64,000 nt of DNA. It comes from Chrysogorgia sp. JL179-B06. Its lineage: Eukaryota; Cnidaria; Anthozoa; Scleralcyonacea; Chrysogorgiidae. The stretch lies in contig JAYKKM010000428.1 of the NCBI GenBank assembly GCA_035772405.1, positions 3,902,001 through 3,966,000 of the forward strand, written 5' to 3'. This document shows positions 23,951 through 61,743 of the stretch, piece after piece. Numbering within the stretch: the first letter of the stretch is position 1; the number at the start of each line of letters is the position of its first letter. Both the position numbers and the translations under genes were made by a program. The notes under the pieces were generated by a model that was not told the DNA's origin, ran no database searches, and saw only the letters and a list, made by a program, of their open reading frames with translations.

Positions 23951-23965
23951 TAACTCACGTTTGAT

Positions 23966-26657: not shown

Positions 26658-26663
26658 ATTACA

Positions 26664-27766: not shown

Positions 27767-27772
27767 ATTACA

Positions 27773-29592: not shown

Positions 29593-29604
29593 ACAGTATA
29601 TTAT

Positions 29605-31089: not shown

Positions 31090-31091
31090 TA

Positions 31092-32249: not shown

Positions 32250-32257
32250 GTTATGTG

Positions 32258-33182: not shown

Positions 33183-33417
33183 ACAGCGAGTAATGAGTCG
33201 AGTTAGCACTCGTTCTCGTTGTCGAGACGACGTTTGAGGTGACAACTGCTCTAGCATTTTTAAAGACGTTTTTAACTTGGTAAAAGGTGTCTGCGAAACT
33301 TTCTCTCTTTATTTCACAAACCTTCTGACCACTGTGTGAAAAAATGTTTCTATGAGACATTGGACGCTTCATGTGACCAATGTCTAAATTTAAAAAGCGG
33401 GGTATCCGAGAACACCC
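33183..33417. other. intergenic gap between convergent genes
   Basis: Includes a small inverted repeat (GTCTCGACAACGAGAACGAG region near 33205-33230). A minus-strand frame (33372 to 33124, starting MKRPMSHRNIFSHSGQKVCE) spans most of it and overlaps the BRO-type gene by 59 bp. I cannot support it as a gene beyond its being open. Confidence 0.35.
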
Positions 33418-33990: not shown

Positions 33991-34744
33991 GATTACTATA
34001 CCTCCAGAGAAATGCTCTCTCCTGTTGCGGCAACTGTTGCTCGTTGTTAAATATCCGCTGAAGCTCTAAGTTTTTAAGATGAGACCTTGAGCTCTCGTGT
34101 CTTGAGCGATGCATTGGGTTGTTGGTAACCACACCACATGGGTAACAATTGTACGACGCGCCGCCGTGCGCAAAATCCAGGTGAGTGTGTGAGAGTATGT
34201 GACTCATGATATCGCCCGCACTCAGTATTTCGTTACACCCCACCCTACAAACGTTGACGTCACAGTTTGCGGCGAGCTCTAGCCACGCTTTGGCTTTGGT
34301 TGAGCATGGTTTCCATAGAAGGGTCGCCAAGAACACTTCGAGGTAGTTACCGAGTAGTGTAGCGGCGGACTCGCAAGGGTTGCTCAAGTAGTGGCTACTC
34401 ACTAGCGTAAGACGTTTGAATGGTGAGTAGCACCACACAGGGATCATCTTGGCTAGTTCGTTAACCATCTTGTTGGCTCTAACTTCATCAAGCTCGACCC
34501 AAGCCTCATGAGCGAACTTTGTATAGAGAATCTGGGCGCCAAATTGTCTTGACACCTCTTCGTTTTTACGATCGGGGTCGCACAATTTGAAGACTTGTGA
34601 GTACCCTTTTAAGACGTTGGGTCCAGAGGCGCCTTGTGGGGTAGACGCATCGACAAAGGACATTCTCCGCATTGCGTCGATCTCCTCTTCTTGGCGGGTT
34701 TGGTCTCGAGTCATCTCTTCTGCGATGTCTTGGACTTGAGTCAT
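33974..34744 (-). CDS. unknown 256-residue protein, possible zinc-binding middle
   Basis: No membrane segment. The N-terminus is a charged helix (AEEMTRDQTRQEEEIDAM). The C-terminal part contains a Cys/His-rich run (CDVNVCRVGC, HILSHTHLDFAHGG, NCYPCG) that could hold a metal. The end overlaps the start of thymidine kinase by 17 bp, so the two probably share a transcript. I could not match it to a family. I looked for an adenain-type His-Asp/Glu-Cys protease pattern here and did not find it convincingly. Confidence 0.75.
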   Translation of the reverse strand: MTQVQDIAEEMTRDQTRQEEEIDAMRRMSFVDASTPQGASGPNVLKGYSQVFKLCDPDRKNEEVSRQFGAQILYTKFAHEAWVELDEVRANKMVNELAKMIPVWCYSPFKRLTLVSSHYLSNPCESAATLLGNYLEVFLATLLWKPCSTKAKAWLELAANCDVNVCRVGCNEILSAGDIMSHILSHTHLDFAHGGASYNCYPCGVVTNNPMHRSRHESSRSHLKNLELQRIFNNEQQLPQQERAFLWRYSNHEESR

Positions 34745-34874
34745 TATGTTATACCCCCAGAAAAAATCCTAATTTTTAGTGCGTTTGGTCTGGGACTGTG
34801 AGATACCTGTGAGGTCAACTGTGAGATACCTGTGAGGTCATCTGTGAGTAAGATAACACGTGATAGTGTATTAG
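34745..34874. promoter_or_regulatory. divergent intergenic region with 23-bp tandem repeats
   Basis: The only spacer over 100 bp between divergent genes inside the element. It contains CTGTGAGATACCTGTGAGGT-type 23-bp units at 34796-34818 and 34819-34841, plus a 7-bp partial third. Tandem sites in a two-way promoter are candidates for transcription-factor binding. Confidence 0.5.
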
Positions 34875-35219
34875 ATGGTTGAAGACCCACAGACGGCTGT
34901 TGAGGCGAAGATTACGGCTGATGTGAAAAGTGTTAAGGTGAAGGACCCAAAACGCGTCGCCGCTGGTAAAAAGTTGGCTGAGATATCGAAAGCTGCGAAA
35001 GAAAAAAAAATGCGTGAAATGATAGTCAACGAAGAACAGGGTGGTGAGTGGGGTTATGGATATGTTGTCGGAACACTTGGTGTAATCATCGCTGGTGCTT
35101 CGTTATGGTACACAATTAGCAGTGAAAAAGAGACACGACTAGAGCCTGTGAGTACTGCACCAGCTGTGTCAGAAAGTTGTAGAACTCGTCGTCCAACACT
35201 TGACACATTTGATTCTTGA
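34875..35219 (+). CDS. small single-pass membrane protein (114 aa)
   Basis: The N-terminal 50 residues are highly basic and Lys-rich (KVKDPKRVAAGKKLAEISKA). One transmembrane segment lies at about residues 58-78 (YGYVVGTLGVIIAGASLWYT), followed by a polar tail. First gene of the rightward block. The next frame starts within 25 bp of its end. Family unknown. Confidence 0.65.
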   Translation: MVEDPQTAVEAKITADVKSVKVKDPKRVAAGKKLAEISKAAKEKKMREMIVNEEQGGEWGYGYVVGTLGVIIAGASLWYTISSEKETRLEPVSTAPAVSESCRTRRPTLDTFDS

Positions 35220-35242
35220 ACAAAACACACGACAATGTATAT

Positions 35243-35479
35243 ATGACTGCGATCGATCGAAAAGAACTTATGAACGAATTGTACGACGCACTACTTGTTA
35301 CGACTGGTGCTGTGGCAGTGAGTATGATTTCTAAAAAGGCTTTGGGAGAACCATTGGGAACACCAGAGACAGTTAAAGGCATAGTGAAACTTGCTGCAGC
35401 TGTTGGTGCAGGAACGCTGTTAGTAAAATGGATGCAATCAAAAAAGTGGATACCGACAGATCCATTCAAATCAACGTAA
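35243..35479 (+). CDS. small membrane protein (78 aa), two hydrophobic segments
   Basis: I start at the ATG at 35243; the frame is open from an upstream TTG at 35216, which is an unlikely start. Hydrophobic stretches at about residues 17-33 (ALLVTTGAVAVSMI) and 48-63 (IVKLAAAVGAGTLLV) suggest a hairpin in the membrane. It ends 4 bp before the next gene. Holin-like or virion-membrane roles are guesses. Confidence 0.6.
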   Translation: MTAIDRKELMNELYDALLVTTGAVAVSMISKKALGEPLGTPETVKGIVKLAAAVGAGTLLVKWMQSKKWIPTDPFKST

Positions 35480-35483
35480 GTTA

Positions 35484-35903
35484 ATGGTGAGCGTTGTGGC
35501 TGGAGGGATATTTAATGCAGTGGCTTTCGCAGGCGCTGGCTTTATGTTTTCAAAGTTTAACCACACAGGCTATGAAGCTGAGATGAAAAGACACAACCAT
35601 GCGTTGGAACAGTTAGCCAGTGCGAAAGAAGTGTGGTATGAGAATGAAATCGCCAAGAAAGATAAGATCCAGCGTTTACGACAACGGCTCTCTGACGCTA
35701 ATGCTGACATCAATGACACAAACCACGCGTTGGAAGAACTTAGAAGCGTAATGACCATACAGTACAGCGGACGAGTGTTCACTGACCTCCCGAGGGTTGC
35801 GGATTACTACCAACCAAGTGCGGAAATGAAGGAATACCAATTATTGTTTGTTAGCGCGCTAGGCTTGGGTAGTGGAATAGTAGTGTGGGTGCTAGTTCGG
35901 TGA
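35484..35903 (+). CDS. membrane protein with central coiled coil (139 aa)
   Basis: A hydrophobic N-terminus (VVAGGIFNAVAFAGAGFMF), a long charged helix with heptad-like spacing (about residues 28-90, rich in Glu, Lys, Leu), and a C-terminal transmembrane segment (LLFVSALGLGSGIVVWVLV). Both ends could be membrane-embedded with the coiled coil between. Third in a row of small membrane proteins. The order suggests a membrane-related module; nothing more can be said. Confidence 0.65.
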   Translation: MVSVVAGGIFNAVAFAGAGFMFSKFNHTGYEAEMKRHNHALEQLASAKEVWYENEIAKKDKIQRLRQRLSDANADINDTNHALEELRSVMTIQYSGRVFTDLPRVADYYQPSAEMKEYQLLFVSALGLGSGIVVWVLVR

Positions 35904-35932
35904 AAAAAATATGTTGGAGTAGTATAAGAGTG

Positions 35933-36496
35933 ATGGACAAACTTATGAGGCAGATGAGCTACGGTTACACAATTGACGAAATCGCGAGTGAGACGCAAAC
36001 TGAGTGTGGAGACACCTTCAGAATTCACCACTGCTCGGATTGTGACGTTGTGAAAAACATCACTGACTGTGGTGGGTACGCATGTCCAAAGTGTGGCGAC
36101 ACCGAATGGGGTTACACTCAGAGTTACAGCGACATGAGACTCACGCGACTAAAAAGCGTTCACAAACGGTCTTGGTGGATGGGGAGGAGACTACGGAATG
36201 TTGTGAAGGGTGAGCACCTTGAGTTGATAAAAGAGGACTTCCTGAAAGTTGTCAATGCGTTGTACTCATGCAATTTGGTAAAGGGTAGAAATGTCAGCAG
36301 ATATGGATACTACATTATTAGGTTGTGTCATAGAAGACGAGTCGAGACACTCAAGAAGGTGTCAGACCTCAAAGACGGGAAGGTGAAAGACTTGTTTGAC
36401 AACAATTTGTTTGGGGTGGTGTACCCAAAGCTGGGATGGTGTGAAAGTGGTGATCGTTATTACAACGAGTGGGTTAAGAAAAAAAGTGTAGTGTAA
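35933..36496 (+). CDS. zinc-ribbon protein (187 aa)
   Basis: The ATG at 35933 avoids the 19-bp overlap of the GTG-initiated longer frame (35885). Residues about 28-55 carry HHCSDCDVVKNITDCGGYAC followed by PKCGD, a C-x2-C...C-x2-C zinc ribbon like those in transcription factors (TFIIB/TFIIS-type) and some viral proteins. The remainder is basic and helical. It lies just before the DNA polymerase gene, so a role in replication or late transcription is possible. Confidence 0.65.
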   Translation: MDKLMRQMSYGYTIDEIASETQTECGDTFRIHHCSDCDVVKNITDCGGYACPKCGDTEWGYTQSYSDMRLTRLKSVHKRSWWMGRRLRNVVKGEHLELIKEDFLKVVNALYSCNLVKGRNVSRYGYYIIRLCHRRRVETLKKVSDLKDGKVKDLFDNNLFGVVYPKLGWCESGDRYYNEWVKKKSVV

Positions 36497-36506
36497 GTAT
36501 AAGCCA

Positions 36507-38036
36507 ATGAGTCGGACTGTGAAAAACCCGCTGAAAAAAAGACGGGCGCATAAGACGAGTGCAGCCGTTGTCGATTCACTAACAGATGAAGCGACCAACG
36601 TTCACGGCTTCTTTAGAGATCAGGAGGGACAACGTCTAGTCGAAGACCTCGCACCGTCAACGCATCTGTTGGATCGAGCACTGAGAGGGTTCACAAGGTC
36701 CTATGGAGTCGAAGTGATTGATGACAGAGACATTAATCAGGTAAATGGTAGTAGAAGTGCTGTCACCAACCTTTTGAGACGTGAATTAGGTGAGACCAAC
36801 GGAATGAAAGTGGTGGAGACAGTTAAGGTCACTTTTGAGAAAGTTTTAGAACTCAATAAGACCACATACAAAACTGCCTACTTTAACAGCGAAACGTTTG
36901 TCGTCATTAACGAGCATGACATCGAGGGTGTCGCCAATCGTGGGTCGGAGCAGATTTTGACGCGGATAGCTGGGTGGTTATCTGAGGGGTCTGGATGGGC
37001 TATCGACAAAATAGATGCACACTACGTTAACGTCGCTATTTACAGACCTTTGCATGGGAGTAGCTACATTGCGTTGCCAAAGGAGCTGCGCAACAGTATG
37101 AAGGGTCTGATAAATGTAAATAACGATGATGACAACGAGTGCTTTAGATGGTGTCACCTTGCGCATAAGTTTCCTGTTGGAAAACACTCCGATAGAACGT
37201 CGAAGTACGCTAGGCATGTCGGTGAGCTGAATTATGACGGAGTTGACTTCCCAGTCACACTCAAAGACTACAACAAGATCGAAAAGGCTAACGAAATTAG
37301 CATTAATGTTTTTGGGTATGAAAATAAGCAGCCATTCCCTGTGTACGTTTCTAAGGAGGCGTGTCCTGACCATATGGACCTATTGTTGATAACTAATGAC
37401 GTGGGTAACAAGCATTATGTGTACATTCGCGATTTTAACAAGTTCATGTACCGCCAAACAGAGCATAAGGCGAGAAAGCACTTTTGCAGGTATTGTTTGC
37501 AATGTTTCACCCGTGCGGACGTGCTTGAACGCCATGTGGAAGTGTGTTTGGTCATTAATGGGAAGCAAGCTATTAAAATGCCACAAAAAGGCGCGAAAGT
37601 AAAATATGAGAATTTTAGCAGACAATTAAATGTACCATTTGTGGTGTATGCAGACTTCGAGGCTATCACACAGAAGGTGCACACAGCGACGCCATCAAGC
37701 GAGTGTAGCTACACAAATGCTTACCAGAGGCATGTTGACTGTGGTTATGGGTATAAATTGGTTTGTTGCTATGACAATGCGTATAGTAAGCCAGTGAAGG
37801 TGTATCGCGGTGAAAATGCAGTCAACAAGTTCATTGGGGAGATGTTAGAAATTGTCGAATATTGTAAAGAGACATCTGAGAGTCACTTTAACAAAGAAAT
37901 GATACTGACTGACGCCGATAAGAAGAACTTTGACGAGGCTAAAAGTTGTCATATTTGCAGTGTTGAGTACACTGGTGCTGACGTTAGAGTGAGAGACCAC
38001 TGTCATGTCTCAGGTAAGTACACATCGTCAGTGTAA
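36507..38036 (+). pseudogene. B-family DNA polymerase, N-terminal part (frame-broken)
   Basis: 509 codons. Residues about 320-345 form a C2H2 finger (HFCRYCLQCFTRADVLERH). ExoI is YADFEAI near nt 37645-37665. A Cys/His cluster CHIC...VRDHCHVSGKY near the end is characteristic of Polinton-type polymerases. The frame then closes at 38034-38036. The next 2.0 kb continue the same protein in the +1 frame, so a short indel around 38005-38030 separates them. The enzyme replicates the element, in this family by protein priming. Programmed frameshifting is not excluded, but I see no standard slippery site. Confidence 0.9.
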
Positions 38037-40086
38037 CGTGAACTTTAGATTGACTGATAAAATTCCTGTGATCTTTCATAACTTACGTGGCTACGATAGC
38101 CATTTCATCATGCAGGAGATTGGTAAGTTTGGTCAAGACATAAATGTGATACCGAACAACATGGAGAAGTACATGGCGTTCATGCTTGGAAAAAACTTGG
38201 TATTTTTGGACAGCTTTCAGTTCATGAGTAGCGGTCTAGACAACTTGGTGAAGAACCTACCAAGGGACGCTTTCAAGTACACGTCAGAAGTGTTTCGCGA
38301 CGAGGGGTTGGCACTCATGACAAGAAAGGGAGTCTATCCCTACGATTATATGGACTCCTTTAATAAATTCGACGAAAGCGAGCTGCCCTCCAAAAAAGAT
38401 TTCTACAGCGTTCTGAACGATGAGCACATCACGGAAGAAATGCACGAGCGCGCCATCGATGTGTGGGACTACTTCGACGTTGAAAGTATGGGTGGGTATC
38501 ACGACCTGTATTTGAAAAGCGACGTGCTCTTGCTTGCCGACGTTTTTGAGAACTTTAGAAAGACATGCCATCGCGAGTATAAATTAGACCCGTGTCACTA
38601 TTTCACGTCGCCTGGATTGGCTTGGGATGCCATGTTAAAGATGACTGGAGTAGAACTCGAGTTATTGTCCGACATCGACATGTTCCAGTTCGTAGAATTA
38701 GGTATGCGTGGTGGTGTGAGCTACATATGCAACAGACATGGCGTGGCGAACAATAAATATATGAAGGGGTACGATAAAGCGCAAGAGTCGAAGTATTTGA
38801 TGTACCTTGACGCCAACAATTTATATGGGTGGGCAATGAGTCGAAGTCTACCTACGGGTGGCTTCAAGTGGTTGACTGAGAGAGAGATAGAAAAGGTTAA
38901 TCTATGCGACTATCACAACAATAGTAAAAAGGGCTCACTGCTTGAAGTCGACTTGGAGTATCCAGCCCATTTGCATGACCTACATAACGACTACCCGCTG
39001 GCTCCTGAGAAGATGGAAATAACTGTTGACATGTTGTCGGAGTACTGCACAAAAATCAAAAATAAGTTTAACGTGAGTGTTGGTGGTGTGAAAAAGCTGG
39101 TGACTAATTTGATGGACAAAAAAAAGTATGTGTGTCACTATAGAAATCTGCAGTTGTACACAGGTCTTGGACTAAAAATCAAAAAGGTGCATAGGGTCCT
39201 ACAGTTTGACCAGTCCAAGTGGTTGGGCAAGTACATTGACTTTAACACAGTCAAGAGAACCGCGGCTAAGAACACTTTCGAGAAGGATTTCTTCAAGTTG
39301 ATGAACAACAGTGTGTTTGGAAAAACAATGGAGAACTTGAGGAAGCGTGTGGACGTAAGATTAGTGACCACCGAGAAAACGTTAGAAAAGCTTGTCTCAA
39401 AGCCTACGTTTGTGTCTTGCAAGATATTTAGCGAGAACTTAGTTGCTGTCCACAAAGTCAAAGAGACGCTGACATTAAATAGACCCGCATACGTGGGTAT
39501 GTGCATACTAGACTTGAGTAAAACGCTGATGTATGATTTTCACTATAATTATATCATGAAAAAGTACTCTAGCGACACCTGTAGATTGCACTTCACTGAC
39601 ACTGACAGTCTGTTGTACTCAATCAAAACTGGCGACGTTTATTCCGACTTCATGGAGGAGCGCGAAAAGTTTGACAATAGCGATTACCCTGCAGACAACC
39701 CGTTCGCTTTCAAAGAGAATAAGAAAGTTATTGGCAAGATGAAAGACGAGTGCGCTGGAACACCAATTATTGAGTTCGTTGGGTTGCGCAGTAAAATGTA
39801 CAGCTATTTGAAAGAGGATGGGGGTGGTGGGAAAACCGCTAAAGGCATTAGAAAGAATATAATTAAAAAAGTGATCAAGCACGAAGATTATAAAAGTGTG
39901 TTACTTGAGCAGAAACAATTGCGACACACAATGAAGACCATTAGAAGTGTCAAACATCAGCTAGGTAGTTATGAAATTAATAAGGTGTCGTTATCCTGTT
40001 TTGACGATAAACGATACCTTTTAGAAAATGGTATTGACTCCTACGCGTATGGTCACAAAAACATTGTAGTGAGAGACATACCTTAA
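38005..40086 (+). pseudogene. B-family DNA polymerase, exonuclease II to C-terminus (continuation)
   Basis: Real homology starts just inside this frame (CNVNFRL, then VIFHNLRGYDSHFIMQEIG, ExoII). ExoIII-like YLKSDVLLLADVFENFR follows. Polymerase motif A is DANNLYGWAMS near 38812-38840, motif B FKLMNNSVFGKTMEN near 39289-39330, motif C FTDTDSLLYS near 39592-39615, and the KxY-like block LRSKMYSYL follows. All catalytic residues are present and the C-terminus is complete, so the gene lacks only frame continuity with the 36507-38036 part. The ATG at 38005 is not a credible natural start. Confidence 0.92.
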
Positions 40087-50324: not shown

Positions 50325-50329
50325 TTGAA
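50325..50329. other. target site duplication of element 2, left (TTGAA)
   Basis: TTGAA precedes AGTAGTCATC and is repeated directly after ACTACT at 61739-61743. Confidence 0.7.
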
Positions 50330-51060
50330 AGTAGTCATCCTTTTTTATTATTATTTTTCATGTGTAAGGGACTGGCACTAGCTCTCAACCAATCAGATTT
50401 GAGTATTAATTTGAATTGACCAATCACAGAGCAGTGGATATATTCATTTCCAGGAGGGTGTCCTAAAGTTTCCCCCCCTGGAATATTTTTTGAAAGTGGG
50501 TTTGGTCAATGATAGTCTATTCAAATCAATACTTCCCCCATCCAATCGGATTTGGTTGTTGGTAGAGCCAGTGCCAGTCCCTTACATATGATGATGACGA
50601 TGAAGAAGAAGGAGGTTGTTGTTTGTCTTTTTACTTCTTGTTGTCGTTGCGCGAAGCAAATATGTCCGCTATCGCTGCCGGCTCTCTTTCTTTCATTTTT
50701 TTTTCGTGGTTGGTTGTTGTTTGATCGAAGATAAATAGTGATGGTGGGTGATGAGGATGAGAGAAAAAAAATTTTTTGAGAATAGAAAAAAAATGTGTTG
50801 ATGAAGATGATAAAATTTTTGAAAAAGAGCAGTGGCGAATTGTATTTTGTAAAAAAAAATGATTTGTGAAAAGTATTTAAAAAATAAAAATGAGAGAGAG
50901 AGCGTTTGCAACGCCTACGACGGAGATGTTCACCCAACGACAGCCAGAGGTAGAATGAATTTGTATCGTGATTCCGGAAGTAAAAGTGTATTTTTTTTGT
51001 GTAAAGATTTTTTAGTAAAAAGGAAAATCCCCTGCTGCATGCGAGTAGAGATACGTTTCA
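50330..51060. repeat. left terminal inverted repeat of element 2
   Basis: Matches 61005-61738 inverted, about 90% alike by eye. Open frames inside it are not conserved between the two copies and are not called. Confidence 0.9.
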
Positions 51061-52125
51061 TATTTTTTCGATGTTATATTTTATGTTTTAAAATTATAAG
51101 TAGTATTTTTTTTTTCTTTATAGGGAGCTGGGAATTGTCCTAGTGTGTGGAATTGGGAAGAATAAACCATTCTTCCCAATTGTATTACTAGAGGGCTGTT
51201 ATGTGTGTGTTTATTTTTTTTTATTTTAAATATTGTATTTATTTTTTAAATATATATATACGAAATATGCTTTTTTAGATGGTGATAAGCAGCGCTTTCG
51301 TATAAATTTTGTAAAAAAAAAAATTACTCCTGTAAAACTATGTTTTTACTTTAGCTAGCTCTTTCACCACATGCTAACATCCAAAAGCCCTGGCGGTGAG
51401 CTAAATGTCTCTATGGACTAGTCTCACCTGACATCAACCCCTTTTTAGAGAGGAAGACCAGACAATAAAGTCTAAACCAGTCGCGATTTACAAGAGTACT
51501 AGGGTTGAATGCGCACCAATGCTGGTTAGTAATAATACACAGCTCATTGGAGGGATCAAGCGCTTCGCACTTTTTAATAGTACGACTTTCAAGCGAGCAT
51601 ACACAGTATACAGCAGGTGTAAAAACAAATATATATATAAAATTTTGTTTTAGAAAAACTAAAAACAATTGGTTGCTATTTTTAAAAATAAAAATGTAAA
51701 AAGTTACTTGTCAAAAAGTATTTTATAAAAAAAAAATCAAAGATAGAAGAGAGAGAGAGAGAGCAAGAGAGAGAGAGAGATGTGTCCTGAACGAAGACCA
51801 GAACCGAAGTGAGGTGGGTGTTGTTATTTCGGACGTAAAATAGGATTTTTTAAGGGTTTTTTATTTGATCAAATAAATAAAAACGGAAGTAAATGGGTTG
51901 CGATGTATATATATAAGAAGATCGCGACAGAGGAAGGGTAGATTTAAGGGTGGATTGTTTTAAAGACGGTGAATATCAATAGAATCTTGTGTAAATATTC
52001 CTAAGGTAGAGTATGATTTTATATGTTTTTTTGTATTTATTAAGGCTTTTATGTGCTTATTCGAGTATATTTCTAAAAGTTATTTTCTGAATATTATTGA
52101 TATGATATTTTTTATTTGATTTTAG
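51061..52125. other. element 2, left interior, no confirmed gene
   Basis: AT-rich. 51400-51620 is of different composition and has a minus-strand frame (CSLESRTIKKCEALDPSNEL and NQHWCAFNPSTLVNRDWF) that reads like a repeat-derived exon. It may be another insertion. A (GA)n run lies at 51748-51780. Confidence 0.35.
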
Positions 52126-52147
52126 ATGGAAACTCAACTTTTTGTTG

Positions 52148-53745
52148 TAGGTAAGGTGGAAGGAAAAGGTGGAAGGAAAAGTGGAAGGAAAAGGTGGAAG
52201 GAAAAGGTGGAAGGAAAAGGTGGAAGGAAAAGGTGGAAGGAAAAGGTGGAAGGAAAATGTGGAAGGAAAATGTGGAAGGAAAAGGTGGAAGGTAAAGGTG
52301 GAAGGAAAAGGTGGAAGGAAAAGGTGGAAGGAAAAGGTGGAAGGAAAAGGTGGAAGGAAAAGGTGGAAGGAAAAGGTGGAAGGAAAAGGTGGAAGGAAAA
52401 GGTGGAAGGAAAAGGTGGAAGGAAAAGGTGGAAGGAAAAGGTGGAAGGAAAAGGTGGAAGGAAAAGGTGGAAGGAAAAGGTGGAAGGAAAAGGTGGAAGG
52501 AAAAGGTGGAAGGAAAAGGTGGAAGGAAAAGGTGGAAGGAAAAGGTGGAAGGAAAAGGTGGAAGGAAAAGGTGGAAGGAAAAGGTGGAAGGAAAAGGTGG
52601 AAGGAAAAGGTGGAAGGAAAAGGTGGAAGGAAAAGGTGGAAGGAAAAGGTGGAAGGAAAAGGTGGAAGGAAAAGGTGGAAGGAAAAGGTGGAAGGAAAAG
52701 GTGGAAGGAAAAGGTGGAAGGAAAAGGTGGAAGGAAAAGGTGGAAGGAAAAGGTGGAAGGAAAAGGTGGAAGGAAAAGGTGGAAGGAAAAGGTGGAAGGA
52801 AAAGGTGGAAGGAAAAGGTGGAAGGAAAAGGTGGTAGGAAAAGGTGGAAGGAAAAGGTGGAAGGAAAAGGTGGAAGGAAAAGGTGGAAGGAAAAGGTGGA
52901 AGGAAAAGGTGGAAGGAAAAGGTGGAAGGAAAAGGTGGAAGGAAAAGGTGGAAGGAAAAGGTGGAAGGAAAAGGTGGAAGGAAAAGGTGGAAGGAAAAGG
53001 TGGAAGGAAAAGGTGGAAGGAAAAGGTGGAAGGAAAAGGTGGAAGGAAAAGGTGGAAGGAAAAGGTGGAAGGAAAAGGTGGAAGGAAAAGGTGGAAGGAA
53101 AAGGTGGAAGGAAAAGGTGGAAGGAAAAGGTGGAAGGAAAAGGTGGAAGGAAAAGGTGGAAGGAAAAGGTGGAAGGAAAAGGTGGAAGGAAAAGGTGGAA
53201 GGAAAAGGTGGAAGGAAAAGGTGGAAGGAAAAGGTGGAAGGAAAAGGTGGAAGGAAAAGGTGGAAGGAAAAGGTGGAAGGAAAAGGTGGAAGGAAAAGGT
53301 GGAAGGAAAAGGTGGAAGGAAAAGGTGGAAGGAAAAGGTGGAAGGAAAAGGTGGAAGGAAAAGGTGGAAGGAAAAGGTGGAAGGAAAAGGTGGAAGGAAA
53401 AGGTGGAAGGAAAAGGTGGAAGGAAAAGGTGGAAGGAAAAGGTGGAAGGAAAAGGTGGAAGGAAAAGGTGGAAGGAAAAGGTGGAAGGAAAAGGTGGAAG
53501 GAAAAGGTGGAAGGAAAAGGTGGAAGGAAAAGGTGGAAGGAAAAGGTGGAAGGAAAAGGTGGAAGGAAAAGGTGGAAGGAAAAGGTGGAAGGAAAAGGTG
53601 GAAGGAAAAGGTGGAAGGAAAAGGTGGAAGGAAAAGGTGGTAGGAAAAGGTGGAAGGAAAAGGTGGAAGGAAAAGGTGGAAGGAAAAGGTGGAAGGAAAA
53701 GGTGGAAGGAAAAGGTGGAAGGAAAAGGTGGAAGGAAAAGGTGGA
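52148..53745. repeat. minisatellite, 13-bp unit GGTGGAAGGAAAA, about 123 copies
   Basis: An almost perfect 1.6-kb array. Variant units occur mainly near the left end (GGTGGAAGGAAAATGT, GGTAAAG) and at about 52833 and 53640 (GGTGGTAGG). Because 13 is not a multiple of 3 and the unit has no stop in any phase, all plus frames and one minus frame stay open for hundreds of codons; these are not genes. Two inverted units follow at 53757-53788, so the right end can fold back. Confidence 0.97.
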
Positions 53746-53974
53746 GAAAAGTTATTTCCTTCCACCTTTTCCTTCCACCTTTTCCTTATTATTTCCTTAT
53801 TCTTTTTATAGTATTACTTTTACATTGAAGTACATTCCGTATACTTTGTGATTTATGAACAACAAGTGAGTTATTACGTCTAGGTGTTTTTATTCTAACC
53901 ATAATTAAATATTGTTTTAATTCCAAGATTAGTTTATATTGTTTTGTTTAATAAATTTTATCATACATTCAATT

Positions 53975-54222
53975 TTATATATAATAGATAATGATAATTG
54001 ATATATATTTTTTTAAATGTTCTAATCTTTCTTGTATTATTAAATAATTAATATAAATGATTTTCTCATCATCTTCTGTAAAATTTAATAGACATTCGCG
54101 AAATATTTCTGGAGAAAATAAAACACAAGCATCATAATGTAAAACTTCATAGGCTACATAAGGTTTATATCTTTTAAATAAATTTCTGTTTGGAACAGCA
54201 AAACGACTTACTGCAACAGTTC
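53975..54222 (-). pseudogene. unknown element-2 gene fragment, cut by the LINE insertion
   Basis: A minus-strand frame reads ISKGTVAVSRFAVPNRNLFK, RYKPYVAYEVLHYDACVLFS and LNFTEDDEKIIYINYLIIQE. Its 5' end meets the LINE insertion, so the start is lost. The sequence looks protein-like, but I do not recognise it. Confidence 0.4.
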
Positions 54223-55075
54223 CTTTGGAAATTTTTATTGATGGTAAATTAATAAATTTTGCCAAAGGTTACAAGTATCTCGGGACTTGGCTTGACCCGT
54301 GTATTAATATGAACGAATACTTGGAAAAGGTTTTTAAGAAAGCCAGCTCCCGATTAAGATTACTGTCCAGAATGAGAAGATCATTGACCAAAGCGGCTGC
54401 AGAAACTATCTATAAAGCAATCATCTTACCAACTATCTTATATTGTTCAAATTCGGTTTTGAAAGTATCTGATACTATTGAGAGCAGACTCGAACACTTG
54501 CAGGAGAGGGCAATAAGAACGATTTACAAAAAGACTGATATGAGTAATAAGGAATGTGATCTGATGTCAATCACTAACAGGAAGAAGCTAAAGGCAGCCT
54601 GTCTAATTTTTCAATGTCTTCAGGGAACATCCATTACGGTTTTTAATAATTATATTAATCAGATGAACCATAGATATCAGACAAGGAACAACAACATTTC
54701 ATTACGATTGCCTCGGGTAAAAACTGAAGCAGCCAGAAAATCTTTCTGGTTCCAAGGACCTTTCTGCTTCAATGAACTCCCACTTGAAATTCGCCAGTCG
54801 AAAACTTTCCTTTTATTTAAGTCAAGACTGAAAGTACATTTTTTTAAATAAGTAAACTTTTCTAATTTTATTATTTATTTTTAACATTATAGTAGTAATT
54901 TATGTAATTTTAGGTTTATACTCATATAGTTTTTAGTATGTAGTTTGTAATTTTTAGCTTGTAATTGTAGTTTGTAGAAGTACACAGGGCCCTTATTGAT
55001 AATAGCATGAATATTTGCTGACAAGGTTACCCTGTATAAATATGTATTTTATTATTATTATTATTATTATTATTG
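54222..55075 (+). mobile_element. 5'-truncated non-LTR retrotransposon with (ATT)n tail
   Basis: The open frame 54225-54851 encodes KLINFAKGYKYLGTWLDPCI, FKKASSRLRLLSRMRRSLTK, IYKAIILPTILYCSN, LEHLQERAIRTIYKKTDM and FNELPLEIRQSKTFLLFKSR, the RT C-terminal region of a CR1/Rex-type LINE. The 3' UTR contains ACACAGGGCCCTTATTGATAA and ends in about nine ATT units at 55050-55073. It is inserted within element 2. Confidence 0.87.
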
Positions 55076-55077
55076 TG

Positions 55078-57570
55078 TACGAAAAATTTCTTAATGTACA
55101 AGGTGTTGATTTGGTAGTGTATTCAGATCTCGATTTTGATAATATCATTTACGATTCACGTACAGATTCGGAAGGAAATCTTATTAGATTAACCAATAAT
55201 ATAGTATGTTTATGGTTAAATAATAAACTTTACGATGTTGTTTTAAATATGAAAGAATTTTCTAAAATACAACCCGATAATTTTTGTATTAAATGTATGA
55301 GTTATTTTTCACATGGTGAATTTATCGATTCACATGTGTGTCGAACTAATTTGACCTGTCATAAATGTTATAAAAATAATTTATGTCCAAAAGATACAAC
55401 GATTAAATGTTCAAATTGTAATATATTATTTTATAATCAAACATGTTATCTCAATCATTTAACCCATAAAATTTTTAAACCTTCTCAAAAAATCATTCAC
55501 GTTTAACTCCTTGTCAATATATGTTTTTTGTGAAACATGTTATAAAATATGTTCTAGATTTTCTTTTATTCAAAAAGATAAAAGTGTAAAACATGATTGT
55601 TCTTAAAGATTTTGTTATCATTGTAATAGTTATCAGAAAAAGACGCATTATTGTTTTATGAAAACACTATCTATTCCTAAAATTAAAAATAAACAACAAC
55701 CAACATTATTTTTTTTTGATTTTGAAACAAAAGTAGATGAAAATAATATGTTAGTTCCTTTTTATTGTATAGTACAAAAAGTATGCATGCAATGTCAAGA
55801 TATTCCGTTTAAAAAACAACAAATTCCCATAATAAAACAATCATGTTTTATTGATGAAAATATTGAACCTGTTAGTTGTTGCAGGTATAGACAATTTCTT
55901 TTTGATAATAATAATAGCGAAGTTGTTGAAGATTTATGTAGTTTTATTTTGGAACAAGAGGGGTCTGTTTGGATTGCACATAATGGAGGGAGATTTGATA
56001 CAATTTTTATTTTTAAATATTTATTAGAAAAATTAAAAATTATTCCAGAAACTATTATGAATGGTACTAAAATAATGAGTTTAAAAATATGTGAGAGGAA
56101 TATTCGATTTTTAGATAGTTATTTTTTTAAACTATGCCCTTATCAGCTATTCCAAAATGTATGGGTCTTCTCGAAGATGAAAAAGGCTTTCACCCCTATA
56201 AATTTACTGATTTAAACTATAAAGGAGATATGATTGATAGGGAATATTTTGATATAGATAATATAAGTGATAAGAGTAAATTTGAAAAATGGTATAATGA
56301 AAAAAATATATATATATATATTTTTCGAGATGAAATATATTATTATTGTTGTGAGGATGTAAATATTTTAAGAAAGGGTAGTGTAAAATTATCATCTATG
56401 ATATATTTTATTGCTCATGTAGCTCCTTTTTATAACACAAAATGTATTACTATTGCAGGCTTAGCATCAACAATATTTCGGCAAAACTTTTTAAAAAAGA
56501 ATTGTATAGGGATAATTCCTGCTGGAGGTTATCGATGTAATGTAAATCAAAGTTTAATTCCTCTTTGTTGGTTGTATGAAATTTATAAACATTTATCAGG
56601 ACGATTAGAATATAAATGTTCCTCTCAAGGAGAAAAAAAATTATTAGGACGGTTTGTAGATGGTTTTTATGATAATACAGTTTATCAATTTCATGGTTGT
56701 TTTTTTCATGGGTGTCCTCGTTGTTTTGAAAAATATGAACTAAATACTTTAGTTAATAAAAAATTTGGAACATTATATGCGAAAACTCAACGTTTTACAA
56801 ATGAATTGTTAAATGCAGGATATAATGTTGTTGAAAAATGGGAATGTGAATGTTTAGATGAAAAAAATATAGTTGTAGTGATATGATTTAATTGAAACAA
56901 AAAAATTTCACATATACATCATTAAAACCCCGTGACGGTTTATATGGAGATCGAACTTCTTCTATATGTTTATTTAGAGAGATAAAACAAAATGAACAAA
57001 TTAAATTTGTAGACTTTACATCTCTATATCCTAGTGTTGGGCATCCTGAAATTTTCATCAATGAAGAGTGTGAAAATATAAATATAAAATATATTTTCGG
57101 TTTGATTAAATGTAGTATATTATCCTCGCAAGATATTTTTTTGGTGTTTTACCTGTCAGAGTAGGTGGAAAATTATTATTCCCTTATGTAATCAATGTGC
57201 TATCGATAAATGTGATAAATGTATACATAATGAAAACGAACGCTGTTCACAGGGTACATGGAGCAGTGTTGAAATTAATAAAGCTATTGATAAGAGATAT
57301 AAAATAATTCAAATCTATGAAATATATCATTATGTTCGACAAGAAAAAATCTTTGTTGATTATGTAAACGATTTTTTAAAACTAAAACAAGAAGCGAAGG
57401 GTTTACCCTCTGAATGTTTCAATAGTGATGGAAGTAAAAATGAAATTAAAATTAACAAGTATTGTGAAGATTATTTGATTAATACATTACAAAATGATCC
57501 CAGCATTGAACTTGCATGCAACAGTACGAGCAAAACATCTTGCTTATACCGCAACAAGAATAACAAAAAT
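55078..57570 (+). pseudogene. B-family DNA polymerase relic of element 2 (different subtype)
   Basis: Pieces in several frames follow the order of one polymerase. First come a Cys-rich N-terminal zinc region (CIKCMSYF, CHKCYKNN, CSNCNILF; then CETCYKIC, CYHCNSYQ), ExoI FFFDFETKVD near 55710, and ExoII WIAHNGGRFDTIFIFKYLL near 55970. An IAGLASTIFRQNFLKKNCIG segment, the FHGCFFHGCPRCF endonuclease-like insert near 56690, and motif A FVDFTSLYPSV near 57010 follow. The linker GTWSSVEINKAID...FKL-KQEA comes last, and similarity ends near 57560 before motifs B and C. At least four frameshifts or stops break it. The GCF-x-HGCP insert and DFTSLYP motif differ from the intact Polinton's enzyme, so the two elements belong to separate lineages. 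Confidence 0.88.
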
Positions 57571-57636
57571 ATATATATGTTTGTTCATGTTATGGAATAA
57601 GTCAAATATTGTTGGTTTTTTCTTCTTGTTCTTCTT

Positions 57637-58158
57637 TCACACACCCAAAGAAATGTTTTTCTTTTTAAGTTTGTCTTTTCTTCTCCATTCTCTTTTATAT
57701 TTGGCTAATTTACTAGATCTTTCCCTATCCCATACTTTCCCCATTTTCCCCCGACGTATTCCGTATTGAATAAGTGTGGATGCATCATAAGTTCTACCCT
57801 TACGATGATAGAAATCTTCAGAATATGATCGAATAATCTCACCGCAGGGTTGCGGGCTCGTGTTCCCACTAATTTCTCGTTCTGGAATAATATCATCCCA
57901 AACACTTTTCTTTGCTTCTTTAAGTATAACAGCCCCCTGAAGATATCCATGATCGTTACTTTCATTTCCAGTTTCACGACTGCATTCAAAATACGTAATA
58001 TTATTCAAATTAAATTTACAAAGAGGTGTACCAATTTTTTTCGCTTCCTCAAACAATTTATCGGCGTTTTCTTTACCCCGACAAAGAAATGACCAAGTCT
58101 TTCTCTTAGACATCGCATACTGCATCTTGTAGTAGTATTCGATCCAAAATGATTTCAC
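57637..58158 (-). CDS. CRESS-type HUH Rep-like protein without helicase
   Basis: 173 residues; MSKRKTWSF (residue 16) is an alternative start. Residues 20-25 (KTWSFL) match Rep motif I in position, 61-77 (RETGNESNDHGYLQGAV) match the E-x-GNE...HLQG motif II region, and Y117-x-x-K120 (YHRK) followed by GRTYD...QYG fits motif III with the catalytic Tyr. In motif II the usual H-L-Q-G reads Y-L-Q-G with a His two positions earlier. The P-loop helicase domain of full Reps is absent; instead there is a very basic tail (KYKREWRRKDKLKKK). Such proteins nick and rejoin DNA in rolling-circle or hairpin replication. The frame is intact although the nearby polymerase is ruined. Confidence 0.58.
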   Translation of the reverse strand: MKSFWIEYYYKMQYAMSKRKTWSFLCRGKENADKLFEEAKKIGTPLCKFNLNNITYFECSRETGNESNDHGYLQGAVILKEAKKSVWDDIIPEREISGNTSPQPCGEIIRSYSEDFYHRKGRTYDASTLIQYGIRRGKMGKVWDRERSSKLAKYKREWRRKDKLKKKNISLGV

Positions 58159-58201
58159 ACACCTAGTTGGTTCTTTTTATATTCTTGGTTCACAAAAACA
58201 T

Positions 58202-58525
58202 TTATTTTTTTAATAAATTTATATCTTTAACTATCTGATATGCAAGTACACCTGTAACAAATTTTTCAATATTCCCCGATTGATCAATTTCCGAATAGAT
58301 ATATACATATTGACGACCATTAGGTAAATCACATAGGAATAATAGTTTAAAAAGGTGAGAAAAAAGATAATTATTAAAACCTAATGTAGGAACTTTTTCA
58401 CATTTTACCAACACAAGTTGAACACGGCCTAAAGTTCCTATAAAATCTTCATTTGTACAAAACAAAGGATTGTCTTTATTCTTCGGTGCTGGTTTTCTTT
58501 TAAAAAAATATGTTCCATCTTCCAT
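58202..58525 (-). CDS. small unknown protein A, copy 1 (107 aa)
   Basis: Begins MEDGTYFFKRKPAPKNKDNP. Core VQLVLVKCEKVPTL and KLLFLCDLPNGRQYVYIYSE is shared with protein B (58631-58966), so A and B are paralogues. No known domain. 42 bp past the Rep-like stop on the same strand. The copy at 59551-59850 is identical up to the duplication junction. Confidence 0.6.
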   Translation of the reverse strand: MEDGTYFFKRKPAPKNKDNPLFCTNEDFIGTLGRVQLVLVKCEKVPTLGFNNYLFSHLFKLLFLCDLPNGRQYVYIYSEIDQSGNIEKFVTGVLAYQIVKDINLLKK

Positions 58526-58630
58526 AAAAAAAACATATGATCCATCATTTTAATTATATATATAACAACATCTTGTAGTATATTGTCCAAAATGAATTCA
58601 CACTTAGTTGATCTTTTTTATAACCTGACT

Positions 58631-58966
58631 TCAATTATATATATAACACTCAATTATACTTTTAACAAGTTTTTCAATATTCTCCGATTGATCTATATGC
58701 GAATAGGTATATATATACTGACGACCAAGCACCGGTAAATCACATAGGAATAATAGTTTATAAAATTGAAACTTGGGAAGATAATTAGGACGTAACATAG
58801 GAACTTTTTCACATTTTACCAGCACAATTTCAACATGTTCTAAAACTGTAATAAAATCATCATTTAGACAATACAGCGCTTCATCTTGATTCGGTAATGG
58901 TTTTCTTTTTATAAAATATGTTTTATCCTCCATAAATGTAAAAATGTGATCCTTCATTTTTCTCAA
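58631..58966 (-). CDS. small unknown protein B, copy 1 (111 aa)
   Basis: Starts MRKMKDHIFTFMEDKTYFIK (an inner ATG at MEDKTYF aligns with protein A's start). Shares with A the VEIVLVKCEKVPML and KLLFLCDLP-x4-RQYIYTYSHIDQ blocks and a similar C-terminus. Upstream gene spacing is short, same strand as Rep. Unknown function. Confidence 0.6.
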   Translation of the reverse strand: MRKMKDHIFTFMEDKTYFIKRKPLPNQDEALYCLNDDFITVLEHVEIVLVKCEKVPMLRPNYLPKFQFYKLLFLCDLPVLGRQYIYTYSHIDQSENIEKLVKSIIECYIYN

Positions 58967-59029
58967 CTCTTGTCTTTACATAAAATCTGTTTTAGAATCT
59001 AACACTCTTACCAACCAAGTCTAACATCT

Positions 59030-59260
59030 TCTTATATAATCATCCAAAACCAATTTACTTCCGGAACCACAATCATAACTAATCCCCGCTTCTTGCAGTT
59101 CATCTTGATGTCGGTAACAAATCAGCAACATATTATTTTTTTCTCCAGCTGAGTGTACAATCACATGGCCTATTTATTTATTCGATTTTTTAAATCGAAT
59201 TACTTCACAAATCACAGGTTGTCGTCGTCGTCGTGTGAAAACATCTCTCTCTGGCATATA
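59030..59260 (-). pseudogene. protein C-like relic, copy 1
   Basis: Minus-strand codons read ICEVIRFKKSN, a stop, then IGHVIVHSAGEKNNMLLICY RHQDE, similar to protein C (FCEVIRFKKSNNEIGRLIVC TAEEKNNMLQIWYQHRDD). The in-frame stop and missing start mark it as dead. Same relic in the second unit at about 60355-60585. Confidence 0.65.
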
Positions 59261-59300
59261 TATTTTTATTCTGTAAATCTTGAGATTTATGAAAATGCTT

Positions 59301-59603
59301 TCATTTTTTAATTTGAAAAATTATTCCATCACTAATCCAGGGTAACCAATCTTTATTAAGAGCTGTATCTTGTGTATCATCTCGATGTTGGTACCAAATC
59401 TGCAACATATTATTTTTTTCTTCAGCTGTGCATACAATCAAACGACCAATTTCATTATTCGATTTTTTAAATCGAATTACTTCACAAAAAATCTCATCAT
59501 TTTCTTCAAAATTAATCAAAGAAAGCTTTTCGAATAACACGTTAACATGTTCAGCTTTTATCACAAATATATTTACAGCACCCGTTTTTTTTGCTCCTGC
59601 CAT
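59301..59603 (-). CDS. small unknown protein C, copy 1 (100 aa)
   Basis: Start chosen at MAGAKKTGAVNIFVIKAEHV, which is common to both copies; longer frames run through duplication or flanking sequence. Soluble-looking, acidic/hydrophobic mix (NFEENDEIFCEVIRFKKSNN, AEEKNNMLQIWYQHRDD). A diverged relative lies next to it, so C is itself a small gene family. Function unknown. Confidence 0.6.
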   Translation of the reverse strand: MAGAKKTGAVNIFVIKAEHVNVLFEKLSLINFEENDEIFCEVIRFKKSNNEIGRLIVCTAEEKNNMLQIWYQHRDDTQDTALNKDWLPWISDGIIFQIKK

Positions 59604-59850
59604 TTTTATCAATTTCCGAATAGATATATACATATTGACGACCATTAGGTAAATCACATAGGAATAATAGTTTAAAAAGGTGAGAAAAAAGATAATTATT
59701 AAAACCTAATGTAGGAACTTTTTCACATTTTACCAACACAAGTTGAACACGGCCTAAAGTTCCTATAAAATCTTCATTTGTACAAAACAAAGGATTGTCT
59801 TTATTCTTCGGTGCTGGTTTTCTTTTAAAAAAATATGTTCCATCTTCCAT
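59551..59850 (-). pseudogene. protein A, copy 2, C-terminally altered by the duplication junction
   Basis: Identical to 58202-58525 through YVYIYSEID, then reads across the junction into the antisense of protein C's start (KNGRSKKNGC) and stops. The natural C-terminus (about 30 residues) is lost. Confidence 0.75.
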
Positions 59851-59955
59851 AAAAAAAACATATGATCCATCATTTTAATTATATATATAACAACATCTTG
59901 TAGTATATTGTCCAAAATGAATTCACACTTAGTTGATCTTTTTTATAACCTGACT

Positions 59956-60291
59956 TCAATTATATATATAACACTCAATTATACTTTTAACAAGTTTTTC
60001 AATATTCTCCGATTGATCTATATGCGAATAGGTATATATATACTGACGACCAAGCACCGGTAAATCACATAGGAATAATAGTTTATAAAATTGAAACTTG
60101 GGAAGATAATTAGGACGTAACATAGGAACTTTTTCACATTTTACCAGCACAATTTCAACATGTTCTAAAACTGTAATAAAATCATCATTTAGACAATACA
60201 GCGCTTCATCTTGATTCGGTAATGGTTTTCTTTTTATAAAATATGTTTTATCCTCCATAAATGTAAAAATGTGATCCTTCATTTTTCTCAA
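59956..60291 (-). CDS. small unknown protein B, copy 2 (111 aa)
   Basis: Same predicted protein as 58631-58966, in the second duplication unit. Confidence 0.6.
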   Translation of the reverse strand: MRKMKDHIFTFMEDKTYFIKRKPLPNQDEALYCLNDDFITVLEHVEIVLVKCEKVPMLRPNYLPKFQFYKLLFLCDLPVLGRQYIYTYSHIDQSENIEKLVKSIIECYIYN

Positions 60292-60354
60292 CTCTTGTCT
60301 TTACATAAAATCTGTTTTAGAATCTAACACTCTTACCAACCAAGTCTAACATCT

Positions 60355-60585
60355 TCTTATATAATCATCCAAAACCAATTTACTTCCGGAACCACAATCA
60401 TAACTAATCCCCGCTTCTTGCAGTTCATCTTGATGTCGGTAACAAATCAGCAACATATTATTTTTTTCTCCAGCTGAGTGTACAATCACATGGCCTATTT
60501 ATTTATTCGATTTTTTAAATCGAATTACTTCACAAATCACAGGTTGTCGTCGTCGTCGTGTGAAAACATCTCTCTCTGGCATATA
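60355..60585 (-). pseudogene. protein C-like relic, copy 2
   Basis: Second-unit copy of 59030-59260 with the same stop. Confidence 0.65.
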
Positions 60586-60625
60586 TATTTTTATTCTGTA
60601 AATCTTGAGATTTATGAAAATGCTT

Positions 60626-60928
60626 TCATTTTTTAATTTGAAAAATTATTCCATCACTAATCCAGGGTAACCAATCTTTATTAAGAGCTGTATCTTGTGT
60701 ATCATCTCGATGTTGGTACCAAATCTGCAACATATTATTTTTTTCTTCAGCTGTGCATACAATCAAACGACCAATTTCATTATTCGATTTTTTAAATCGA
60801 ATTACTTCACAAAAAATCTCATCATTTTCTTCAAAATTAATCAAAGAAAGCTTTTCGAATAACACGTTAACATGTTCAGCTTTTATCACAAATATATTTA
60901 CAGCACCCGTTTTTTTTGCTCCTGCCAT
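60626..60928 (-). CDS. small unknown protein C, copy 2 (100 aa)
   Basis: Same protein as 59301-59603. Here the upstream sequence is probably original: an ATG six codons earlier (MAGAIKMAGAKK) lies just inside the right TIR boundary at 61005, so transcription may start in the TIR. Confidence 0.6.
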   Translation of the reverse strand: MAGAKKTGAVNIFVIKAEHVNVLFEKLSLINFEENDEIFCEVIRFKKSNNEIGRLIVCTAEEKNNMLQIWYQHRDDTQDTALNKDWLPWISDGIIFQIKK

Positions 60929-61004
60929 TTTTATTGCTCCTGCCATTATTTCTCTAAAAAACATTTTGTATCGATATTCTTATATACCCTCCTTCCCTTT
61001 AATC

Positions 61005-61738
61005 TGAAACGTATTTCTACTCGCACGCAGCAGGGGATTTTCCTTTTTAATAAAAAATCTTTACACAAAAAAAAATACACTTTTACTTCCGGAATCACGA
61101 TACAAATTCATTCTACCTATGGCTGTCGTTGGGTGAACATCTCCGTCGTAGTCGCTGCAAACGTCATTTCTTTTTTTTTTAAATACTTTTCACATATCAC
61201 AAATCATTTTTTTTACAAAATACAATTCACCACTACTCTTTTTCAAAAAATTTATCATCTTCATCAACACATTTTGTTTCTATTCTCAAAAAAATATTTT
61301 TCTCTCATCCTCATCACCCACCATCACCATTTATCTTCGATCAAACAACAACCAACCATGAAAAAAATGAAAGAAAGAGAGCCGGCAGCGATGGCGGACA
61401 TATTTGCTTCGCGCAACGACAACAAGAAGTAAAAAGACAAACAACAACCTTCTTCTTCATCATCGTCATCATCATATTTAAGGGACTGGCACTGGCTCTA
61501 CCAACAACCAAATCAGATTGGACGGGGGAAGTATTGATTTGAATTGACTATCATTGACTAAACCCACTTTCAAAAAATATTCCAGGGGTCGGGGGCAACT
61601 TTGGGACACCCTCCTGGAAATGAATATATCCACTGCTCTGTGATTGGTCAATTCAAATCAATACTCAAATCTGATTGGTTGAGAGCTAGTGCTAGTCCCT
61701 TACACATGAAAAATAATAATAAAAAAACGATGACTACT
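61005..61738. repeat. right terminal inverted repeat of element 2
   Basis: Inverse of 50330-51060, ending GATGACTACT, with scattered substitutions and short homopolymer differences. Confidence 0.9.
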
Positions 61739-61743
61739 TTGAA
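61739..61743. other. target site duplication of element 2, right (TTGAA)
   Basis: Direct repeat of 50325-50329. The sixth base differs (GTTGAA versus TTGAAC), so the duplication is five bases or has decayed from six. Confidence 0.7.

What the first reader, a model, noticed from the sequence alone, without database searches (positions are those of the whole stretch)
50330..61738. Inverted-repeat element combining a Polinton-type DNA polymerase with an HUH Rep-like gene
Inside one pair of 730-bp TIRs lie a B-family polymerase relic and an open CRESS-type Rep-like frame with small novel genes, and none of the usual Polinton capsid, ATPase or integrase genes. Protein-primed and HUH-nicking replication are normally separate strategies. 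Bidnaviruses are the known precedent for mixing PolB with a parvovirus-like lineage, but I know no described element with this exact set.
Basis: partly seen in the sequence, partly recalled or inferred. Interest (0 to 1): 0.87.

Follow-up and report, generated by a model that had tools for sequence, protein, structure and literature searches.

The report
Deleted Polinton with Rep-like accessory gene
This is an old, internally deleted copy of a virus-like transposon (a Polinton) that is common in this genome; the supposed replication-nickase gene is a conserved accessory gene of the full-length Polintons, and nothing yet shows that it is a nickase.

Summary
In full-length relatives in the same genome (31,284 and 30,768 bp) PolB and the Rep-like gene lie ~16.5 kb apart, with Polinton core genes between them: A32-type ATPase, adenovirus-type protease, capsid-position ORFs, rve integrase. 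The window copy lacks ~15.4 kb here, so the missing genes reflect an internal deletion, not a new element type. The Rep-like gene is no stray insertion: 46 of 65 near-subfamily PolB matches have it at the expected place and orientation (0.19 expected by chance), a second subfamily has it too, and it evolves mostly under purifying selection. HUH membership is not supported: no significant Pfam, PHROG or PDB-sequence match, and the motif-II histidine position is Tyr, Phe or Val in 20 of 21 sequences; Gln-Gly and Tyr-x-x-Arg are invariant. Both structure models failed (pLDDT 38 and 41.5). Verdict: a deletion derivative of a Polinton family with a Rep-resembling accessory protein that I did not find described.

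The parts
50325..50329 (.). left target-site duplication TTGAA
   Evidence: read directly; equals 61739-61743
50330..51064 (+). left terminal inverted repeat, end motif AGTAGT
52153..53745 (+). 13-bp minisatellite, about 123 units, where the full-length relative C96 has about 6.3 kb including a second Rep-like gene
54190..55070 (+). stretch without a DNA match in C96 (which has about 1.06 kb there); holds a 208-aa ORF (54225-54851) that looks by eye like the 3' end of a LINE reverse transcriptase (recalled; no Pfam support)
55072..57478 (+). relic of DNA polymerase B, broken into several frames, its 3' part missing
   Evidence: 89% DNA identity to C96:4141430-4143857
57479..57668 (.). junction of the internal gap: C96 has about 15.4 kb between the flanking homologies (4143857 and 4159272)
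57637..58158 (-). open frame of the Rep-like accessory protein, 173 aa
58202..58525 (-). small accessory ORF, 107 aa, aligned in A5
58631..58966 (-). small accessory ORF, 111 aa, paralog aligned in A5
59301..59657 (-). small accessory ORF, 118 aa, duplicate of 60626-60964 in its main part
58283..59609 (.). first copy of an exact 1327-bp tandem duplication (period 1325)
59608..60934 (.). second copy of the exact tandem duplication; covers most of ORFs 59551-59850, 59956-60291, 60626-60964 (-)
61001..61738 (-). right terminal inverted repeat, end motif ACTACT
61739..61743 (.). right target-site duplication TTGAA

Best explanation
The element is a non-autonomous, internally deleted and decayed copy of a Polinton/Maverick (endogenous polintovirus) subfamily. 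The parent type is about 31 kb: long TIRs, a left accessory region, PolB and ATPase on one strand, then protease, capsid-position ORFs and integrase on the other strand, and a right accessory region of many small genes, among them the Rep-like gene. Mechanism: full-length relatives would copy themselves by protein-primed PolB from the TIR ends and insert by the rve integrase with a 5-bp target duplication (ends, TIRs, duplications and genes shown; the activity inferred from the family). This copy cannot make PolB, ATPase or integrase; whether it lost them before or after insertion is open. The Rep-like protein is most likely a DNA-binding or host-interacting accessory factor kept by selection. 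If it does descend from a Rep nuclease domain, it has lost the motif-II histidine and so is probably not a nicking enzyme (inferred).
For: Full-length relatives: C96 with 1,490-bp TIRs at 98.1% and ends and duplication read, C159 with ends and duplication read; core genes found by Pfam in ORFs of C378 and C96. Alignment of the window copy to C96 shows the gaps. PolB-Rep pairing in 46 of 65 near-subfamily rows at a median 16.5 kb and in 16 of 85 far-subfamily rows (all lists capped at 150), 0.19 expected for the first. (AGT)2/(ACT)2 ends as in vertebrate Mavericks (PMC8097293 section 7). Purifying selection on the Rep-like protein: omega of the window frame against 14 relatives 0.27-0.50, median 0.44 over 100 pairs. 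No stop inside 133 of 150 rows (hand count; a best-150 list, so biased to good copies). Motif-II His position: Tyr 17, Phe 2, Val 1, His 1 of 21.
Against: The target duplication is 5 bp in 3 of 3 elements whose both ends were read, not the 6 bp reported for vertebrate Mavericks (PMC8097293). Capsid genes are assigned by position only: two capsid-position ORFs gave no Pfam match better than 0.04 and no PDB match better than 0.09. The protease match is below its curated cut-off. 19 of 65 near-subfamily PolB rows lack a listed Rep-like partner at the expected place (the Rep list holds 150 of 1044 candidates; 5 of the 19 have one elsewhere within 40 kb). About 67 of 150 rows (hand count) have a stop inside. 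Among close relatives omega is higher (L003 against six near-subfamily members 0.38-0.97; the maximum over 100 pairs is 1.14). Function of the Rep-like protein rests on inference.
Confidence: 0.88

Rival explanations
1. The Rep-like protein is a true descendant of a CRESS/parvovirus Rep nuclease domain (HUH fold) captured by an ancestral Polinton and turned into a TIR- or origin-binding protein without nicking activity.
For: Order and spacing resemble the Rep nuclease domain (recalled): a W-S-F strand, then about 46 residues to an invariant Q-G in G-x-(I/L)-Q-G, then an invariant Tyr with Arg three residues on. The two poor models begin strand-helix-strand-strand and have a helix at or next to the Tyr. 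Capture of a Rep gene by a PolB virus has precedent: fowl adenovirus ORF12 is said to appear to be a captured parvovirus NS1 Rep (PMC11071296, passages).
Against: No significant profile match to any Rep family; the motif-II His is absent in 20 of 21; no helicase part; models with pLDDT 38.2 and 41.5 cannot be used for fold comparison, and the first makes the Q-G stretch a helix.
Confidence: 0.22
2. The Rep-like protein is an active HUH nickase and these Polintons use rolling-circle or hairpin initiation beside protein priming.
For: Co-conservation with PolB, an invariant Tyr and purifying selection.
Against: Motif-II His missing in 20 of 21; no excess of NANTATTAC-type nonamers (window element 4 found against 5.7 expected; five C96 pieces 14 against about 16.6); no significant profile match.
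Confidence: 0.03
3. A compact, separately replicating PolB plus Rep element type, with the window copy as a representative and the 31-kb elements as derivatives.
For: The window copy has both genes and both TIRs.
Against: Among the 46 paired near-subfamily places only the window has a spacing under 11 kb (1,506 bp; the rest 11.8-20.7 kb); its PolB homology stops where a ~15.4-kb block follows in C96 and the gene is broken into several frames.
Confidence: 0.03

Closest known systems
Polinton/Maverick elements (Eupolintoviridae, formerly Adintoviridae; PMC12451622, passages)
   Same: PolB, A32-type ATPase, adenovirus-type protease, rve integrase, two opposed core modules flanked by accessory regions, long TIRs, (AGT)2/(ACT)2 ends
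   Different: 5-bp rather than 6-bp target duplications; about 31 kb rather than the 12.7-24.6 kb reported for intact vertebrate elements; one or two Rep-like accessory genes and a Fic-domain gene; the window copy lacks most of the core modules
Fowl adenovirus ORF12 (said to be a captured parvovirus Rep) and parvoviruses with an auxiliary CressRep (PMC11071296, passages)
   Same: a Rep-derived gene beside another replication system
   Different: ORF12 is described as NS1-derived; here no homology to any Rep could be shown and the protein is one small domain
Bidnaviridae
   Same: Polinton-derived PolB and TIRs
   Different: bidnaviruses lost the nicking domain and keep an SF3 helicase and a parvovirus capsid (PMC4061559, passages); neither turned up among the 20 ORFs scanned
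Mriyaviruses (PMC11253617, passages)
   Same: dsDNA viruses with double jelly-roll capsids and an HUH gene
   Different: their HUH motifs are intact and they lack DNA polymerase

Membership tests
[quoted passage not shown]
   PF03175 E 2.6e-11 on the relic; open PolB frames of up to 1391 aa in relatives. Protein priming itself was not tested
Polinton/Maverick | rve integrase | tested here: met
   met in a full-length relative (C96), PF00665 E 7.5e-9; not found in the window copy
Polinton/Maverick | A32/FtsK-type packaging ATPase and adenovirus-type protease | tested here: met
   C378: PF04665 E 1.1e-8; PF00770 E 0.0016, 18.6 bits, below its 21.3-bit cut-off; not found in the window copy
Polinton/Maverick | double jelly-roll major and single jelly-roll minor capsid proteins | tested here: inconclusive
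   ORFs of 409 aa (C378) and 304 aa (C96) at the expected places and order, no profile match
Polinton/Maverick | long TIRs with (AGT)2//(ACT)2 ends | tested here: met
   against PMC8097293 section 7
Polinton/Maverick | 6-bp target-site duplication | tested here: not met
   5 bp in 3 of 3 elements whose both ends were read: TTGAA, CCTTG, GACAT. The 6-bp figure is from vertebrate elements; I take it as a variable detail and file by gene set, order and ends
HUH endonuclease | motif II with metal-binding histidine(s) | tested here: not met
   His at the position two before the Gln in 1 of 21 distinct sequences; the position is named from recall
HUH endonuclease | motif III catalytic Tyr (Yx2-3K, PMC11253617) | tested here: inconclusive
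   Tyr in 21 of 21 but followed by x-x-Arg
HUH endonuclease | sequence-profile relationship to a known Rep | tested here: not met
   with HMMER; a profile-profile (HHpred-type) test could not be done
HUH endonuclease | HUH fold | tested here: inconclusive
   AlphaFold2 pLDDT 38.2 and 41.5; fold search never ran
CRESS/parvovirus Rep | C-terminal superfamily 3 helicase in the same protein | tested here: not met
   frames of about 150-175 aa as a rule, no helicase match
Bidnavirus | parvovirus-like SF3 helicase and capsid with PolB | tested here: inconclusive
   none among the 20 ORFs scanned; other ORFs were not scanned

The most novel reading that the evidence does not exclude
A Polinton lineage that is abundant in this genome keeps one or two copies of a captured Rep nuclease domain that has lost its metal-site histidine, as a dedicated TIR- or origin-binding partner of protein-primed PolB: a Rep fold reused inside the other replication strategy.
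Probability: 0.18. Interest if true: 0.65.

Novelty: new member of a known kind. Interest (0 to 1): 0.34.

Why it matters
It removes a claimed hybrid replicon: the gene set of the window copy is what an internal deletion left of a Polinton architecture. What remains of interest is a conserved accessory protein family that I did not find described, present in at least two Polinton subfamilies of this genome with one relative in the protein database, whose resemblance to Rep nuclease domains could be settled by one good structure. If it were a dead Rep, it would show how Rep domains are reused by PolB-encoding viruses.

Tried and rejected
Separate insertion of the Rep-like gene: rejected by the repeated pairing. 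The Rep-like family as a paralog of the small-ORF family A5: profile-profile comparison found no relation (probability 0.1%). The small-ORF family against PDB: best E 0.014, not convincing. Relatives of the Rep-like protein in viral contigs: 59 stretches matched a pattern, none confirmed. In the protein database: none for the single protein, one (P0001, 155 aa, source tag 'lgn', 1,005-bp contig) with the alignments. CRESS-type Rep with PF02407 in the own genome: none, but the control rang nowhere, so this says little. A degenerate motif pattern in viral contigs, to obtain Rep sequences for a profile-profile test, gave 3 loci; no Rep-like ORF of the minimum lengths asked (80-120 aa) lay over the match sites, so that test could not be done. 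Rep-type origin nonamers: no excess. Structure prediction: single sequence pLDDT 38.2, two sequences 41.5; fold search never accepted. A tree of the Rep-like sequences separates the left paralogs, the far and the near subfamily; it was not used further. Literature searches; in the listings and passages seen I met no Polinton with an HUH or Rep gene, but the library is open-access only and a main review (PMC11426020) is not held.

Own slips: one PolB row (C313, 73%) was left out; one search includes it (46 of 65 instead of 45 of 64). One search gave a wrong extent of the duplication from an index error; one search is right. One search included a 10-base stretch by mistake (L055).
Full report
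WHAT IS THERE. The element spans 50330-61738 (11,409 bp). Its arms pair between 50341-51064 and 61001-61726; aligned with a few neighbouring bases the two sides agree in 707 of 776 ungapped columns. The ends read AGTAGTC...GACTACT and are flanked by TTGAA on both sides. Inside, on the + strand, lies a PolB relic in several frames (PF03175 E 2.6e-11 for 56134-56886). On the - strand lie the 173-aa Rep-like frame (57637-58158) and small ORFs, most of them doubled by an exact 1327-bp tandem duplication. A 13-bp minisatellite of about 123 units fills 52153-53745.

RELATIVES IN THE SAME GENOME. A search with the Rep-like protein gave 150 scored matches, itself included, out of 1044 candidates; one with a 250-aa PolB piece gave 150 out of 1781. 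Both lists are capped. The PolB rows fall into a near subfamily (69-100% identity, 65 rows) and a far one (59-61%, 85 rows). In 46 of the 65 near rows a Rep-like match lies on the opposite strand, downstream, within 30 kb, at a median of 16,514 bp; 0.19 would be expected under uniform placement. In the far subfamily 16 of 85 rows pair with a match, a search with a far Rep-like protein (two capped lists); 14 of these lie at 15.9-16.4 kb, two at 8.7 and 26.4 kb. One far element that did not appear there (C196) was read directly and also has the gene (L064, 84% to the far Rep-like query, 47% to the window). The pairing is therefore a property of the elements. Of the 19 near rows without the expected partner, 5 have a Rep-like match elsewhere within 40 kb.

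FULL-LENGTH ELEMENTS. C96:4131665-4162948 (31,284 bp) has 1,490-bp TIRs at 98.1% identity and a CCTTG duplication. C159:5204442-5235209 (30,768 bp) has a GACAT duplication. Ten ORFs of C96 and of a third copy, C378, were scanned with Pfam. Between PolB and the Rep-like gene they give an A32-type ATPase on the PolB strand (C378) and, on the other strand, an adenovirus-type protease (C378; below its cut-off), ORFs of 409 aa (C378) and 304 aa (C96) in the major and minor capsid positions without a match, and an rve integrase (C96); beyond the integrase lie a Fic-domain gene (C96) and small ORFs. The ATPase frame is interrupted in C96 but open in C378; C159 has ORFs with the same beginnings for ATPase and protease, while no open integrase frame of 130 aa or more with that beginning was listed for it. 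The order PolB-ATPase facing integrase-mCP-PW-MCP-protease (here with extra ORFs between), the flanking accessory regions and the (AGT)2/(ACT)2 ends are those described for vertebrate Mavericks (PMC8097293, section 7 read; passages). The left accessory region of three copies carries a second Rep-like paralog (L036, L037, L038; 46-47% to the window).

WHAT HAPPENED TO THE WINDOW COPY. Aligned to C96, the window runs along PolB up to 57478 (C96 4143857) and resumes at 57669 (C96 4159272): about 15.4 kb with ATPase, protease, capsid-position ORFs and integrase are missing. A second gap of about 6.3 kb, where the minisatellite stands, holds the left Rep-like paralog in C96; 54190-55070 has no DNA match in C96, which has about 1.06 kb there. 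Among the 46 paired near-subfamily places the window alone has a spacing below 11 kb. It is also divergent: its PolB piece is at most 84% and its Rep-like protein at most 75% identical to the other listed copies.

THE REP-LIKE PROTEIN. It is conserved (19-member alignment A1, mean column identity 58%) and mostly under purifying selection: omega of the window frame against 14 relatives 0.27-0.50, median 0.44 over 100 usable pairs of 105; among close relatives it is higher (L003 against six near members 0.38-0.97; maximum of all 1.14). No stop lies inside 133 of 150 rows, but about 67 of 150 rows have one (hand counts), as expected of a mix of younger and older copies. It has no significant match: Pfam (best 0.2 in 1 of 19 members), PHROGs (best 0.015, a zinc-finger family, 2 of 11 members), PDB sequences by single protein and by profile (best 0.043, SIR4). 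Its resemblance to a Rep nuclease domain is one of order and spacing as I recall it: a W-S-F strand, an invariant Q-G in G-x-(I/L)-Q-G, and an invariant Tyr with Arg three residues on. In CRESS Reps the residue two before the Gln is, as I recall, the metal-binding His; here it is Tyr 17, Phe 2, Val 1, His 1 of 21 distinct sequences. So a feature that defines HUH nucleases was tested and not met, while descent from one is neither shown nor excluded. The two AlphaFold2 models (pLDDT 38.2; 41.5) are too poor to compare.

HOW IT MOST LIKELY WORKS. Shown: a Polinton family with TIRs, 5-bp duplications, PolB, ATPase, protease-like gene, integrase and a conserved accessory gene. Inferred from the family: protein-primed replication from the TIR ends, packaging, and integration. 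Inferred only: the accessory protein binds DNA or a host factor; it is probably not a nickase. The window copy is a fossil that could move only with proteins supplied from elsewhere, if at all.

AGAINST THE LITERATURE. Bidnaviruses have a Polinton PolB instead of the nicking domain (PMC4061559, abstract and passages), so they are no precedent for both in one genome. Capture of Rep genes by PolB viruses has been proposed: fowl adenovirus ORF12 is said to appear to be a captured parvovirus NS1 (PMC11071296, passages). Mriyaviruses have intact HUH genes without DNA polymerase (PMC11253617, passages). In the listings I saw no Polinton with a Rep-like gene; this is a limited search.

VERDICT. Ordinary in its main point (a deletion derivative of a Polinton), with an accessory protein family, not found described, as the remaining lead.

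Noticed in passing
window 22835-40083: A second, different Polinton-like element or remnant: A32 ATPase (23354-23965 -, E 1.8e-17), chromodomain protein with a weak rve match (27776-28930 -, 1.5e-10 and 9.1e-6, the latter below cut-off), Bro-N plus VRR-NUC protein (32322-33179 +), thymidine kinase (33421-34065 -, E 1.5e-28); 36492-40083 + looks like PolB by eye but had no Pfam match at 0.01.
   Followed up: partly
L030:4139-4801 (C96 element): A Fic/DOC-domain protein (E 4.8e-10) encoded beyond the integrase of the full-length Polinton.
   Followed up: no
window 58283-60934: Exact 1327-bp tandem duplication without a mismatch inside an otherwise decayed element whose TIRs differ by about 9%: very recent, gene conversion, or an assembly artefact.
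   Followed up: partly
L036:783-1163, L037:1415-1795, L038:4316-4699: A second, diverged Rep-like paralog in the left accessory region of three full-length-type elements.
   Followed up: partly
window 60626-60964: Small accessory ORF with a weak match to the Rpn13 Pru domain (E 0.0029, below cut-off); probably chance.
   Followed up: no
L007:1468-2517, L053: Two Rep-like genes side by side in some elements.
   Followed up: no
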